A DNA stretch of 64,000 bases, taken from Methylobacter sp. GTDB lineage: Bacteria > Pseudomonadota > Gammaproteobacteria > Methylococcales > Methylomonadaceae. The stretch covers positions 22,455-86,454 of the forward strand of contig SCPZ01000099.1 of the NCBI GenBank assembly GCA_004299305.1. The letters are read 5' to 3'. This document shows, piece by piece, positions 16,454-23,419 of the stretch (the stretch's first letter is position 1; each line of letters opens with the position of its first letter). The translations under genes were made by a program, and so were the position numbers. The notes under the pieces are model-generated. The model saw only the letters and a program-made list of their open reading frames with translations, was not told where the DNA came from and made no database searches.

Positions 16454-17200
16454 ATGGTGCTTAATATGAAACGAAACAAAGTAATTGAAGCTTTCGGTCA
16501 AGATAAATTAATAGAGCATAAACAACGCGTTGCTTTTCATGAAGCAGGGCATGCTGCAGGCATTCATTTAAATAATCAAGCTAGAAACCTGCCGCCGGTT
16601 TTTTTTAAAATTATTTTTAAAGAAATGAACGACCAGACAGCCTCGGATGTCATGGCTTATCAATCAACTCATGACGATTGTCTGGCACGAGTGGAAGGCG
16701 GGCGGTTAATTGAATTGTTACCCCCTTCTATTGATTGCTTAGTGCATGAATTAGCGGAACACGATGACATCATTGTGCAATTGGTAAAGGATTATATGAC
16801 AGCCTTTGAGGCGGACATTATTAATCTGCTTATCGGGCCTTTGGCTGAAGCTAAACATGTCGCGGACACCGATGATGAGTTGTTTAATCATAAGTTGGTT
16901 ACCCTGGACGCATTAAAAAATTATGGCGGCAGTTCCGATATTGCCTTGGCTAACGAATATTTACAATGTTTCTCTGCCGATAAACAACAACAAAATGAAA
17001 AATTGGCTGAGCTGTTTAGCATTGCATTTGATTTTATAAATAATGCAGCAAACTGGGCGGCTATTTCCAATCTAGCCGGATATATTCTAGGTAGTCGTAA
17101 AAATGTTATTTATTGCGAGGAAATTTTTTCAACGCTTGATCAGTCGGTAGCTCACTTTCAAAATCGGGTAAGCCAGACCAGGAGTTATCGCTATGGATAA
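16454..17200 (+). CDS. Stand-alone M41-like (HEAGH) metallopeptidase-domain protein
   Basis: RVAFHEAGHAAGIHL; FEADIINLLIGPLAEAK...GGSSDIALANEYL echoes the FtsH peptidase layout. Confidence 0.65.
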   Translation: MVLNMKRNKVIEAFGQDKLIEHKQRVAFHEAGHAAGIHLNNQARNLPPVFFKIIFKEMNDQTASDVMAYQSTHDDCLARVEGGRLIELLPPSIDCLVHELAEHDDIIVQLVKDYMTAFEADIINLLIGPLAEAKHVADTDDELFNHKLVTLDALKNYGGSSDIALANEYLQCFSADKQQQNEKLAELFSIAFDFINNAANWAAISNLAGYILGSRKNVIYCEEIFSTLDQSVAHFQNRVSQTRSYRYG

Positions 17201-17588
17201 CTTAAAGAACAATATCATTACTGAGGGGCTCATGTTGTTGGGTAATCTCTTCGGTTATCTCAAAAAATTAGTGATGGTTGGTTTTCCATTTAAGCGAGAA
17301 CTTATAGAGTCCATCGATTTTTTAAGAACACTGGAAAATATCCATGGATTAGGTGGACGAATGGCTCAGGGCGAGCTATTGGAAGAGGGGCATGGAACTG
17401 AAAAAAACCTGTTGGCCTGTGCTGTTTCTGAGGAGGCTCAGGTGTTGTTCTTTAACATCAGCGGGTCGGAATTCATTGAACTGTATGTTAGTCCTGGCGT
17501 TGCCGGAATACGGGAACTTTGGAATAAAGCGGTGCTGTTTGCCGGACGTTTCGGTCACCAAGTTATTGTCGATAGACCGGGTGTCTAA
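17193..17588 (+). pseudogene. Degenerate FtsH AAA-domain fragment
   Basis: ELIESIDFLRTLENIHGLGGRMAQGELLEEGHGTEKNLLACAVSEEAQVLFFNISGSEFIELYVSPGVAGIRELW aligns by eye to the FtsH AAA N-terminal part; Walker A destroyed. Confidence 0.75.
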
Positions 17589-17678
17589 GTTATCTTGGCA
17601 TCGTTCCGATATGCAGCGTCGTGTTTATTGACGGGTTTTCAATCTTCAACTTGGGCCCCGCGCAAAGGAGAACAGTTC

Positions 17679-17924
17679 ATGAAAATTAATAAGCCAGTAA
17701 CCGAAGTAAAGCATCTTTTTTGCGATAGCGACTTTGGCGTTTCAAATATCTTTACGGAAGACGAACTTAGAGACCAAGTAGCCATTTTTTTGGGTGAACG
17801 TTTGGCCGATGAGATTGTATTGGGACGACTATCAAGCGGGACTCGGAATGATTTGGAAAAAACCGGTGAGATCGCCAAAAATAATGACTGTAAGCCAAGT
17901 ATAAGCAAAAAATGGGGGAATTGA
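17679..17924 (+). pseudogene. Chimeric ORF: PAS-MCP N-terminal start joined to FtsH M41 C-terminal fragment
   Basis: [23 protein letters not shown] (compare MCP at 18215) then EDELRDQVAIFLGERLADEIVLGRLSSGTRNDLEKTGEIAKN (FtsH-like). Confidence 0.75.
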
Positions 17925-18214
17925 GATTGTCTATGTTCACTAAGGTATCGCGGTTGCAGTGATGAATATAGTCCGTTTTAGAAGCCAAGAAGGAGAAGTG
18001 CGTGCTCATTAAATTACCGTCGCAAACAGTTTGGTATCGGAATACCGACCGATTTGTTACAAGAAAAAGATAACTACTCAGTGGTATCAGTGTTTCTATT
18101 TTTCTAGCTGCTGAGTGGAGAAGAACTTAAAAGCCGTAAGGCGCATAAGTGTAATCGAAACAAGAAAATCAATACTCCGTAAGTTAACCATTAGTTAAAT
18201 GGGAGGATCAGCAC

Positions 18215-20944
18215 ATGAAAATTAATAAGCCAGTAACCGATGTGGAACATGTTCTTAGCGACAGTGACTCTATTGTTTCCAACACCGATCTAAAAGGAGT
18301 GATCACCTACGCTAACGATACGTTTATTCGTATCAGCGGATATTCCAGAGAAGAGCTGATCGGGGCTCCACACAATATAGTGCGTCATCCCGATATGCCG
18401 CCCGAAGCCTTTGCAGATTTGTGGAGAGCGATGAAGGCCGCCCGCCCGTGGACCGGCATAGTCAAAAATCGCTGCAAAAACGGTGACTATTATTGGGTGT
18501 TGGCTAATGCCGCACCGATTCATGAAAATAATCAGCTGGTCGGTTACATGTCGGTGCGCAGTAAACCTGAGCGTGAACAAGTTGAGGCGGCCGATGCCGC
18601 TTATCGGTTATTTCGTGAAGGTAAGGCCGACAACCTGAAAATCCAGGATGGCAAAGTCGTTAAAGACACGCTGCTGTCACGGTTTAACGTATTCAAGTAT
18701 TTCAATATCAAAACCCGTCTGATTGCTATGGTCAGCCTGCTGTCGGTATTGCTGCTGGTTATCGGCAGTATAGGATTGTTCAGTATGCACAATGCCAAAG
18801 ACAGTCTGTTTACCGTGTATGAAAATCGTCTCCTGCCGATCAGCCAAATAACCTCGATTCAAACCTTACTGCTGACTAATCGACTCGCTATTGTCGACAG
18901 TCTTAATAACCCAAGCGCCGAGGTGATTTTGAAAAATACCGTCGAAGTGGAGCAAAACATCGACAAAATCACCCGGCTTAAGGATGCCTATATGGCTGCC
19001 CCGTTAAGCCATGAAGAAAAAATATTGGCAGACCAATTTGCCGAGTACAGAAAACACTTTGTGTCGGATGGATTAAAGCCGGCCATTACGGCCTTGCGAG
19101 CCAATGATATAACGCAGGCTTATAGGGTTGTTGCGGATAATATCAACACGCTTTACTTACCGGTCGGGAAGACTATTCAGCAGTTGCTGCAATTGCAGCT
19201 GGATGAGGCCAAGCAGGAGCTTGGGGCAGTCCAGTCACATTATGAGATGATTCGCAATATTTCCATTGGCCTGATCGGGATGGGTATTCCTATGGTTTTA
19301 TGGCTGGGCTTGGCCCTGATTCCTATCGTTATACATCCGCTCGAAGCAACCATTGCTCACTTCGGTCAAATTGCCCAGGGAAATTACAGGAATATCATTG
19401 AAATAGAACACAACAATGAAGTCGGAAAAGTCATGGAAGCCATTAAATCGATGCAGACCCGGCTCGGTTTTGATGTCGCGGAAACGCGGCGTATCGCCGA
19501 TGAAAACCTGTTGGTCAAGATTGCGTTGGATAACGTCAGTACGGGGGTCATGATTGCGGACAACAAGGGGGAAATTATTTATGTTAATAAGTCAGTCAGC
19601 GATATTTTCGGTAAAGCCGAGAAAGACATTCGTAAAGATTTGCCTAATTTCTCGGTAGATAAGCTGTTAGGTAGCAAAATTGACGGTTTTCATAAGAATC
19701 CTGAACATCAAGCATACTTACTCGCATCATTAACCGACACCTATATCGCCAGTATGGAATTAGGCGGTCGTTTCATGGCAGTCGCTGTCAATCCGGTTAT
19801 CAATGAACAGGGGGTGCATCTGGGATCGGTAGTCGAATGGCAGGATCGAACCGACGAAGTTGCGGTGGAAAAAGAGGTATCTACCATCGTGGTAGCCTCC
19901 AGTATGGGCGATTTCACCAAGCGCTTTGACTTGCATGGCAAAGCAGGTTTTCTGCGTGAGCTGGGCGAAGGTCTCAATCAAATGTTGTATACCAGCGCAA
20001 CCGGTCTCAATGAAGTGGTGCGTGTACTTGATGCGCTATCCCGTGGCGACTTGACGGAAACCATTACCAATGATTATCAAGGTACTTTTGGACAGCTTAA
20101 GGAAGACTCCAATACTACGGTCGAAAAACTTAAAGGAATCATCAATAAAATCAGGGATGCTACCGACAATATTAATGTCGGCGCTAAAGAAATTACGGTA
20201 GGTAACCATGATTTGTCGTATCGCACCGAACAACAATCCGCCAGTTTGCAAGAAACCGCCGCCAGCATGCAGGAACTTACCTCTACCGTACAAGCCAATG
20301 CCGAAAACGCCAAACAGGCCAATCAGCTTGTTATTGATGCTTCTAAGATAGCTGGTAGGGGAGGCGTCATTGTCGGCCAAGTTGTGACTACGATGGATGA
20401 ACTCAACGAAGCTTCGCACAAAATCAGTGACATTATTTCGGTAATTGATGACATCGCTTTTCAGACTAATATTCTCGCTTTCAACGCCGCCGTAGAAGCC
20501 GCTCGTGCCGGCGAGCACGGACAAGGTTTTGCGGTGGTAGCCGAAGAAGTGCGTCATCTTGCGCAACGCGCAGCCACATCCGCCGGGGAAATTAAAAATT
20601 TGATCGAGGGTTCGGTAGGAAAAATTAATGTCGGCACTAAACTGGCTGCCCAGGCAGGTTGTGCGATGGAAGAAATCCTTAGTTCTGTCAGTGGCGTCTC
20701 CAGCATGATGTCGGAAATAACCGCCGCCTCGGTTGAACAAAGCTCCGAGATCGAACAAATTAATTTAGCCATCACGCAAATGGATAATGTGATTCAACAA
20801 AATGCAGCTTTGGTTGAGCAAGCCGCTGTCGCCGCAGAATCACTTGAAGAACAAGCGCAAAATCTGGCTGTTATTGTGAGCTGTTTCAGGATAGATGGGG
20901 CAGGTATGCTTGTAAGTAGTAGGTGTGACACTTTGCAAAGCTAA
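18215..20944 (+). CDS. PAS-containing methyl-accepting chemotaxis protein (Aer-like)
   Basis: N-terminal PAS, 2 TM, HAMP, second PAS, MA hairpin [24 protein letters not shown]. Confidence 0.93.
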
Positions 20945-20953
20945 GCCATTTTA

Positions 20954-23419
20954 TTGCCAGTCGCAAATCGACAGGAACTTACCATGAAAGAGATCATTAA
21001 AAAATACCAACACTCAATAACGGTCGAGTCTATTACACGACTTATATTTGCATTGTTATGTGCTATTTTTGTCAGTAGTGCGATCACTCAATGGACCGTT
21101 CAATCGATGGCCCCGCTTCCGCATTGGGGCGAGTACGTGCTTTATTCAATCTTGCTGTTGTGTATGGTTTTTCCTAGCCTTTATATTTTTGAGGTGCGCC
21201 CGCTGGGATTCCTGATTGGCAAACTCGCCCAAGCTGAACGAACCGCACTTATCACGTCAGAATATTTGAGCAACCTGATTTCCTCCAGTTCGGTCATATT
21301 ATTTTCGATGCGGGCGGTGGGCAATCAGTTACACCCGGAATGGGTCAGCAGCGACAATCTTTATCGCCTGTTAGGCTACTCCGAGGAAGAAGCCTTGCAA
21401 CGAGATTGGTGGTTTAGGTGTTTACACGCTCAAGATCGAGATAGCGTGGTGGCTGCTACGGCAAAATTATTTCGGGGCGAAGCGGTTACTTGCGACTACC
21501 GTTTCATGCACAAAAACGGCAGTGAAGTTTGGATACACGATGAGCAAAAGTTGATGGACTATGATGAGGACGGCAAGCCGACGCATGTATTGTGTATGTG
21601 GTACGACATCACCCGGCAGAAAATGGTGGAGCAGGAACTGAATATCGCCTCTCATATGTTTGATTCACATGAGGGTATTATCGTTACCGATGCCAATATG
21701 GTCATCCAGCGGGTGAATCCCGCCTTTACCCAGATCACCGGTTATAGCGCCGACGACATTGTCGGAAAAATACCTGAGGAACTCAATTCCGGTCGACAAG
21801 ATGCGATGTTCTATCGTGCCATGTGGCAAACTATTCAACGAGACGGCTACTGGCAAGGGGAGATGTGGAACAAGCGCAAGAATGGCGAGATATATCCTGA
21901 GTGGTTCACCATCACCGCTATCAAGGATGGCGATGGTAACACCACCCATCATGTCGGTACTTTCTATGACATTACCGATCGCAACGGCTCGGAAGAGCGT
22001 ATCCGTATCCTTGCCTTTTATGATCCTCTTACTAAGCTACCTAATCGTCGCCTGCTCCAGGAGCGCATAGACCAAGCCATCGCTGCCAGTACTCATTCCC
22101 GGCAACATGCGGCGCTGTTATTTTTGGATCTGGATCGATTCAAGATACTCAATGACACATACGGTCATAATATGGGCGATCAGCTGCTGCTGGAGGTTAC
22201 AAGAAGGCTGCAATTTTGTGTACATGAAGACGACACCATCGCTCGGTTGGGCGGCGACGAGTTTGTGATGATACTCAATTCATTGGATAAATACGCCACT
22301 AAAGCCGCTGCTCAGGCAAAAAAACTGGCTGAAATGATTGGTGAGGCTTTGGCAAAACCTTATCATCTATTAGTTCCATTTAGCCAATCCAAAGCGACCA
22401 TCACCTATCACTCCAGCGCCAGTATCGGTGTCGTGCTGTTTTTGGGAGATGAGAAGAGCACTGAAGAGCTGATGAAATACGCTGACTTGTCCATGTACGA
22501 AGCCAAACATGCAGGGCGTGATACTGTGTGTATTTTCGACCCCGGTATGCAAACGGATATTATGGCGCGCGCCAGTTTGGAGGCGGATTTGCACCGTGGA
22601 TTGCAGGATAAGCAGTTTGTCTTGCACTACCAACCGCAAGTGGATACCGATGGCAATATAACCGGTTCCGAAGCGTTGGTGAGGTGGATACATCCACAGC
22701 GCGGCATGGTGTCTCCAATCGATTTTGTTCCGTTAGCCGAGGAAAGCGGTTTGATACTGCCGCTGGGGCTATGGGTTTTGGAAACCGCCTGCGCCCAGTT
22801 GGCGATATGGGGCGCCCGGCAAGAAACTGCGCATCTTACGCTGGCTGTAAATGTTAGCGCCCACCAGTTCCGTCAGGTCGATTTTGTCGAGCAGGTGTTA
22901 GAAGTGCTTGAGCGCACCGGCGCTGATCCTTTCAGGCTCAAACTGGAACTTACCGAAAGTCTGCTGGTATCTAATGTAGAGGATATTATTATCAAAATGA
23001 CGACATTAAAAGAGAAGGGGGTGTCCTTCTCCCTGGATGATTTCGGCACCGGTTATTCGTCACTCTCTTACCTGAAGCGACTGCCTCTGGATCAACTGAA
23101 AATTGACCAAGGTTTTGTCAGGGATGTTCTCATCGATCTTAACGATGCCGCTATTGCCAAGATGGTTATCGCCCTAGCCGAGAGTATGGGGCTGGTGGTT
23201 ATCGCCGAAGGTGTGGAAAGCGAGGAACAGAGGAGGTTTCTTGCTCGCCATGGTTGTCATGCTTATCAGGGCTATCTGTTTAGCAAGCCGCTATCGTTGG
23301 AACATTTTGAGGCGTATATAGCGGGGGCTGCTCAGAAGGAGGAGCTTGAATTTGACAATTATTCGGTGAGCACTGTTGATTCCGGGCGCATTCCGTATCA
23401 AGTCAGCGCGATAATTTAA
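20954..23419 (+). CDS. Membrane PAS-PAS-GGDEF-EAL protein; start probably at MKEIIKK
   Basis: ARLGGDEFVMIL and SEALVRWIHPQRGMVSP, LDDFGTGYSSLSYLKRLPLDQLKID. Confidence 0.93.
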   Translation: MPVANRQELTMKEIIKKYQHSITVESITRLIFALLCAIFVSSAITQWTVQSMAPLPHWGEYVLYSILLLCMVFPSLYIFEVRPLGFLIGKLAQAERTALITSEYLSNLISSSSVILFSMRAVGNQLHPEWVSSDNLYRLLGYSEEEALQRDWWFRCLHAQDRDSVVAATAKLFRGEAVTCDYRFMHKNGSEVWIHDEQKLMDYDEDGKPTHVLCMWYDITRQKMVEQELNIASHMFDSHEGIIVTDANMVIQRVNPAFTQITGYSADDIVGKIPEELNSGRQDAMFYRAMWQTIQRDGYWQGEMWNKRKNGEIYPEWFTITAIKDGDGNTTHHVGTFYDITDRNGSEERIRILAFYDPLTKLPNRRLLQERIDQAIAASTHSRQHAALLFLDLDRFKILNDTYGHNMGDQLLLEVTRRLQFCVHEDDTIARLGGDEFVMILNSLDKYATKAAAQAKKLAEMIGEALAKPYHLLVPFSQSKATITYHSSASIGVVLFLGDEKSTEELMKYADLSMYEAKHAGRDTVCIFDPGMQTDIMARASLEADLHRGLQDKQFVLHYQPQVDTDGNITGSEALVRWIHPQRGMVSPIDFVPLAEESGLILPLGLWVLETACAQLAIWGARQETAHLTLAVNVSAHQFRQVDFVEQVLEVLERTGADPFRLKLELTESLLVSNVEDIIIKMTTLKEKGVSFSLDDFGTGYSSLSYLKRLPLDQLKIDQGFVRDVLIDLNDAAIAKMVIALAESMGLVVIAEGVESEEQRRFLARHGCHAYQGYLFSKPLSLEHFEAYIAGAAQKEELEFDNYSVSTVDSGRIPYQVSAII

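What the first reader, a model, noticed from the sequence alone, without database searches (positions are those of the whole stretch)
16454..17924. FtsH graveyard beside a stand-alone HEAGH protein
Three consecutive ORFs carry FtsH-like pieces: a 248-aa protein with HEAGHA and M41-like layout; a fragment matching the FtsH AAA N-terminal part (LGGRMAQGELLEEGHGTEKNLLACAVSEEAQVLFFNISGSEF) with the Walker A ruined (GPPGTGKT to EEGHGTEKN) and no Walker B; and a piece matching the FtsH peptidase C-terminus (EDELRDQVAIFLGERLADEIVLGRLSSGTRNDLEKTGEIAKN). The second and third pieces lie in the same frame, consistent with an internal deletion. The first ORF overlaps the second and could be an intact domesticated protease domain.
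Basis: partly seen in the sequence, partly recalled or inferred. Interest (0 to 1): 0.7.

Follow-up and report, generated by a model that had tools for sequence, protein, structure and literature searches.

The report
Stand-alone FtsH-type peptidase beside FtsH remains
Methane-eating bacteria of one family carry a many-copy gene for a free-standing version of the protein-cutting domain of the membrane protease FtsH; here it sits beside the crumbling remains of the FtsH gene it was once paired with, and nearby relatives show the intact pair.

Summary
ORF 16454-17200 is intact. ORFs 17193-17588 and 17595-17924 carry FtsH pieces; further collinear FtsH debris (17987-18070) and a spliced-in chemoreceptor 5' fragment (17678-17748) were missed.

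The HEAGH gene is not a piece of the dead FtsH. It belongs to a separate family under purifying selection (7 paralogs here, all 23 genus genomes, 26 of 29 genera of the family, none found outside it). Its predicted fold matches the FtsH M41 peptidase domain, with HExxH and a likely third ligand, D162. In most close relatives its neighbour is an intact third FtsH paralog ('FtsH3'), often overlapping it by 8 nt. The window holds a duplicate cassette whose FtsH3 half collapsed.

The second ORF is not plain debris. Three lineages share it with the same deletion, six shared derived residues (including a dead Walker A) and omega 0.36 (p=5e-5 against 1), so an ATPase-dead FtsH stub was inherited and constrained; it is broken in a fourth lineage.

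Elsewhere FtsH3 was also lost beside retained HEAGH genes, and copies fused to a receiver domain have broken active sites. Most likely function: ATP-independent zinc peptidase. Catalysis is untested. New variant of a known kind.

The parts
16454..17200 (+). Stand-alone M41-fold HEAGH protein, 248 aa (second ATG at 16466 gives MKRN..., a start many relatives use); HExxH = H29 E30 H33, candidate third ligand D162
   Evidence: dN/dS 0.15-0.22 against other copies
17193..17588 (+). 131-aa ATPase-dead FtsH3 stub: FtsH3 residues 1-31 joined to ~213-291 and ~356-379
   Evidence: shared stub lineage and omega 0.36
17193..17285 (+). FtsH3 5' end (residues 1-31), with the ancestral 8-nt overlap with the HEAGH gene
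17292..17520 (+). FtsH3 AAA N-terminal part with mutated Walker A
17524..17580 (+). FtsH3 piece ~356-379 (LLRAGRFDRQIVVDKP equivalent), past the missing Walker B
17678..17748 (+). 5' fragment of a PAS chemoreceptor gene spliced into the FtsH debris
17753..17924 (+). FtsH3 M41 piece (residues ~514-568), read as the end of ORF 3
17987..18070 (+).
18215..20944 (+). PAS/TarH/HAMP methyl-accepting chemotaxis protein, the downstream neighbour shared with the other stub loci
20954..23419 (+). PAS-GGDEF-EAL protein; a 79% identical protein follows the broken stub in genome G007

Best explanation
The window holds a duplicated copy of a two-gene cassette of Methylomonadaceae. Gene 1 encodes a soluble stand-alone M41-fold protein. 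Gene 2, overlapping it by 8 nt and so probably translationally coupled, encodes a third FtsH paralog (FtsH3). In this copy gene 2 collapsed into a short ATPase-dead stub plus debris, while gene 1 stayed intact and under purifying selection. The HEAGH protein most likely works as an ATP-independent zinc peptidase: H29, H33 and D162 bind zinc and E30 activates water. Without the AAA+ ring it would cut exposed or unstructured protein segments, with substrate choice divided among the many paralogs. Shown: gene structure, family, cassette, decay pattern, selection. Inferred: fold (prediction), zinc site (conservation and co-loss), translational coupling (overlap only), catalysis and substrates (no data).
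For: 7 paralogs in the genome, one directly upstream of an intact 649-aa FtsH3. 23 of 23 genus genomes carry the family, 26 of 29 genera. Intact FtsH3 starts at or just past the HEAGH stop in most close relatives. AlphaFold mean pLDDT 81; the first 25 Foldseek hits are all FtsH-family chains, the best at E=9.6e-4, probability 1.00. hhalign to FtsH E=2e-6, matching the HEAGH helix and the C-terminal helix. H29 in 97 of 97 copies, E30 in 95, H33 in 92, D162 in 92; D162 is lost in 3 of 6 HExxH-broken copies and only as D-to-E in 2 of 91 others (Fisher p=0.0013). dN/dS of HEAGH 0.11-0.22. FtsH3 debris beside intact HEAGH genes at other loci.
Against: No single family member passes the Pfam M41 cut-off (best E=0.0049). 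The Foldseek TM-score is only about 0.45 on the query, and part of the long middle section is low-confidence. D162 could not be placed by sequence alignment: hhalign of that region found only the C-terminal helix. No coordinates were available to inspect the zinc geometry. FtsH proteolysis is described as requiring oligomeric complexes (PMC9020784), so an AAA-free peptidase domain may be weak or inactive. The Fisher tests ignore relatedness; the receiver-fused copies form one clade.
Confidence: 0.55

Rival explanations
1. The HEAGH protein is not an independent protease but a partner or regulator of FtsH: it docks on the peptidase ring of FtsH3 (or of the two ordinary FtsH proteins) and tunes or blocks it, as a domain mimic.
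For: Conserved gene overlap with FtsH3; within the family 71 of 72 FtsH3-bearing genomes also have HEAGH, against 50 of 79 without (p=1e-8); broken-site copies fused to receiver domains show that the fold can be kept without catalysis.
Against: 50 genomes keep HEAGH with no FtsH3 detected, and several copies keep HEAGH after FtsH3 decayed. The active-site residues are kept in over 90% of copies, which a pure mimic would not need.
Confidence: 0.27
2. The second ORF is itself a working small protein, an ATPase-dead FtsH stub kept by selection, perhaps needed to couple translation of HEAGH to the next gene or to bind FtsH rings. (This can be true together with the best explanation.)
For: Same N-terminus-to-ESIDF deletion, six shared derived residues including Walker A T-to-N and VPFF-to-VLFF, and the same HEAGH-stub-chemoreceptor order in three lineages. 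dS of stub, HEAGH and chemoreceptor agree (1.3/1.1/1.3 and 0.7/0.8/0.8), so the stub is as old as the locus. omega 0.36, LRT p=5e-5. Neutral simulation keeps 109 codons open in about 5% of runs per lineage at d=0.4.
Against: Only three lineages and 72 codons. In G007 the stub carries a stop and has no HEAGH; in the G022 lineage the stub is open but HEAGH is broken, and the close pair L089/L138 shows omega near 1 on only 4 changes. Found as an intact ORF in 3 of 23 genus genomes.
Confidence: 0.4
3. Everything downstream of HEAGH is neutral debris, and the shared residues only reflect a slow decay that began before the species split.
For: Multiple deletions, an inserted chemoreceptor fragment and a stop between the pieces; the stub is broken in G007.
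Against: The stub-stub dN/dS of 0.19-0.31 over a dS of about 0.7-1.4 is far below 1. Neutral debris does fit ORF 3 and the 17987-18070 piece, which were not found in the other stub loci.
Confidence: 0.3

Closest known systems
FtsH (MEROPS family M41, AAA+ membrane protease)
   Same: HExxH in an HEAGHA helix, helix order, likely Asp third ligand, C-terminal NxxxLxxLAxxL helix; FtsH-family chains are the only confident fold matches
   Different: No AAA+ ATPase domain in the chain; a poorly conserved middle section; no member reaches the Pfam M41 cut-off
Chloroplast FtsHi pseudoproteases
   Same: FtsH-derived proteins with lost HExxH, comparable to the receiver-fused copies; FtsHi chains are among the Foldseek hits (PMC8197885)
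   Different: FtsHi are built on the AAA+ part and have lost the protease site; here the main family keeps the protease site and has no AAA+ part
Additional bacterial FtsH xenologs such as PaFtsH2 of Pseudomonas aeruginosa clone C
   Same: An extra FtsH besides the housekeeping one (PMC10850787); proteins resembling the FtsH3 N-terminal region occur patchily in other Gammaproteobacteria (30 of 274 genomes)
   Different: No HEAGH-type partner gene was found outside the family; the relation of FtsH3 to PaFtsH2 was not tested

Membership tests
Peptidase family M41 (for the HEAGH protein) | Sequence match to the M41 profile above its cut-off | tested here: not met
   36 of 45 members hit Peptidase_M41 but at best E=0.0049; the window protein scores 13.1 bits against a cut-off of 29.9
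Peptidase family M41 (for the HEAGH protein) | HExxH zinc motif | tested here: met
   intact in 91 of 97 copies, including the window's
Peptidase family M41 (for the HEAGH protein) | Downstream aspartate as third zinc ligand | tested here: inconclusive
   D162 in 92 of 97 copies and lost together with HExxH (p=0.0013), but its position in the zinc site was not seen
Peptidase family M41 (for the HEAGH protein) | M41 fold | tested here: met
   Foldseek on the AlphaFold model: top 25 hits all FtsH/FtsHi/YME1/AFG3L2 chains, but TM on query only about 0.45
FtsH protein (for the HEAGH protein) | AAA+ domain in the same chain | tested here: not met
   248 aa, no AAA match
FtsH protein (for ORFs 2 and 3) | Walker A, Walker B, SRH and HExxH present | tested here: not met
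   Walker A mutated; the others fall in the missing stretches
Peptidase family M41 (for the HEAGH protein) | Zinc-dependent peptidase activity | not testable with these tools
   needs purified protein

The most novel reading that the evidence does not exclude
A clade-specific expansion of stand-alone, AAA-free M41 peptidases, tied to an extra FtsH in a coupled cassette and repeatedly freed by loss of that FtsH. Some copies became catalytically dead signalling modules fused to a receiver domain, and one lineage kept an ATPase-dead FtsH stub as a third working gene between the peptidase and a chemoreceptor.
Probability: 0.3. Interest if true: 0.7.

Novelty: new variant of a known kind. Interest (0 to 1): 0.5.

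Why it matters
FtsH is textbook as one chain joining an ATP-driven unfolding ring to a zinc peptidase. A large, conserved family that has only the peptidase half, in up to 7 copies per genome, asks whether that half can work alone and on what. The same genomes hold the coupled, uncoupled and catalytically dead versions, so the steps of domain separation can be compared directly. I found no paper on it in the open-access library searched, and no Pfam or NCBIfam model covers the window protein.

Tried and rejected
Domestication of the peptidase domain from this very FtsH: rejected, since FtsH3 in the intact cassette has its own HEAGH domain and the two are far apart in sequence. Phage or plasmid origin: no match in either collection, no informative PHROG. 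Presence beyond the family: none in 367 further class genomes or in the other families of the order, though sensitivity there is limited to what the profile reaches. Obligate FtsH3 partnership: rejected by 50 genomes with HEAGH but no FtsH3. hhalign on the region around D162 gave nothing beyond the C-terminal helix. PDB sequence search with the HEAGH protein found nothing. An apparently larger FtsH remnant in KRF1 turned out to contain an inserted genomic repeat.

Full report
What is there. The window lies in a draft methanotroph genome whose same-genus relatives are named Methylobacter; I call the family Methylomonadaceae (its GTDB name, from own knowledge; NCBI files these under Methylococcaceae). 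The three ORFs are real. ORF 2 is FtsH AAA sequence (TIGR01241, E=2.7e-20) and ORF 3 is FtsH peptidase sequence (Pfam M41, E=1.2e-7). ORF 1 shows only a weak HEAGHA hit on its own and finds nothing in the PDB by sequence.

The HEAGH protein is a family. Searching the genome with it gave seven loci, the other six 50-75% identical over most of the length. All 23 genus genomes carry it, with 2-7 matches each, as do 121 of 151 family genomes in 26 of 29 genera. A 45-row profile found it only in that family: none in the other families sampled from the order or among 367 further class genomes. Named matches are Methylobacter, Methylovulum, Crenothrix and other Methylococcales. It is absent from the plasmid and phage collections.

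Fold and active site. The AlphaFold model (mean pLDDT 81, pTM 0.80) matches FtsH-family chains only: FtsH, YME1, AFG3L2 and chloroplast FtsHi fill the first 25 places, the best at E=9.6e-4. Profile-profile comparison with FtsH gives E=2e-6, anchored at the HEAGH helix and the C-terminal helix; a direct HMM search shows the same two anchors. In 97 distinct copies H29 is invariant, E30 is kept in 95, H33 in 92 and D162 in 92. Three of the five D162 changes fall among the six copies whose HExxH is broken, and the other two are D to E (p=0.0013). I take D162 as the likely third zinc ligand; this is inference, since sequence alignment did not place it. Four copies are fused to a response-regulator receiver domain and all four have HAAGH or HEAGY in place of HEAGH; the fused copies form one clade, so this is few events.

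The cassette. A paralog on contig C130 lies directly upstream of an intact 649-aa FtsH, 44% identical to the two ordinary FtsH proteins of the genome; I call it FtsH3. Most close relatives have the same pair, with FtsH3 80-91% identical. In many the FtsH3 start overlaps the HEAGH stop by 8 nt (e.g. ATGGATGA or ATGGTTGA), the same overlap that joins ORF 1 and ORF 2 here. A GGDEF-EAL gene lies upstream of many of these pairs. FtsH3 is not obligatory: 71 of 72 genomes with FtsH3 have HEAGH, but so do 50 of 79 without.

The decay. The window's FtsH3 is represented, in order, by residues 1-31, ~213-291, ~356-379, then a 5' chemoreceptor fragment, ~514-568 and ~608-636. It is a gene with several deletions and an insertion. 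In the 37-copy clade that holds the window gene, about 15 copies have an intact FtsH3 start downstream and at least four other loci (L027, L033, L038, L089; weaker L042) show debris or a stub beside an intact HEAGH gene.

The stub is older than debris should be. The same HEAGH-stub-chemoreceptor order occurs in Candidatus Methylobacter oryzae KRF1 (L091) and in a MAG labelled Methylomonas sp. (L089), whose stub is nearly identical to that of M. tundripaludum OWC-G53F (L138). The three stubs share the N-terminus-to-ESIDF deletion (KRF1 has a genomic repeat inserted there) and six residues that differ from all seven intact FtsH3 proteins compared: P47L, K49N, Walker A T72N, R76C, P85L and F98Y in stub numbering. 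Pairwise dS agrees between stub (1.31, 0.74, 1.41), HEAGH (1.09, 0.83, 1.38) and chemoreceptor (1.30, 0.81, 1.16), so all three genes have travelled together. A three-sequence codon model gives omega 0.36 for the 72-codon stub core, rejecting 1 with p=5e-5. Against this, G007 has a stub with a stop and no HEAGH, and HEAGH itself is broken beside the stub in the G022 lineage. I read ORF 2 as a truncated protein that was constrained for much of its history and may still be made here; ORF 3 and the last piece are debris.

Selection on HEAGH.

How it most likely works. Shown: an intact, selected protein with a complete HExxH and a predicted M41 fold, without an AAA+ domain. Inferred: an ATP-independent zinc peptidase for exposed segments, co-produced with an extra FtsH in the intact cassette and alone elsewhere. 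The main rival is a ring partner or regulator of FtsH. Nothing here measures activity, substrate or binding.

Known or new. The M41 domain is known; FtsHi are known pseudoproteases with the opposite loss (PMC8197885), and some plant FtsH proteins have an extra or misplaced protease domain (PMC9020784). I found no description of a stand-alone M41 family or of this family in the searches made, which cover open-access text only.

Noticed in passing
L006:1507-2598; L060:4713-5789; L126:3650-4748; L148:3998-5101: HEAGH copies fused to a C-terminal receiver domain, all with broken HExxH (HAAGH in one, HEAGY in three), suggesting reuse as a catalytically dead signalling module.
   Followed up: partly
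L058:4659-5558 and L121:3956-4873: Two further HExxH-broken copies (HAAGY, HEAGY) carry a different 56-61 aa C-terminal extension.
   Followed up: no
L099, L100, L151 and window 18215-23419: Other HEAGH copies sit next to chemoreceptor or GGDEF-EAL genes; 34 of 80 loci have such a signalling neighbour or fusion, but no background rate was computed.
   Followed up: partly
L091 (KRF1) and L044, L059, L094, L119: A short repeat encoding IPxGHKFxLxxQAAQLSF recurs in the KRF1 genome and is inserted inside the stub and at other places near HEAGH genes.
   Followed up: no
L138:5086-6581: In M. tundripaludum OWC-G53F a deletion joins the start of the chemoreceptor to the GGDEF-EAL part of the next gene, and the HEAGH gene there is broken.
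   Followed up: no
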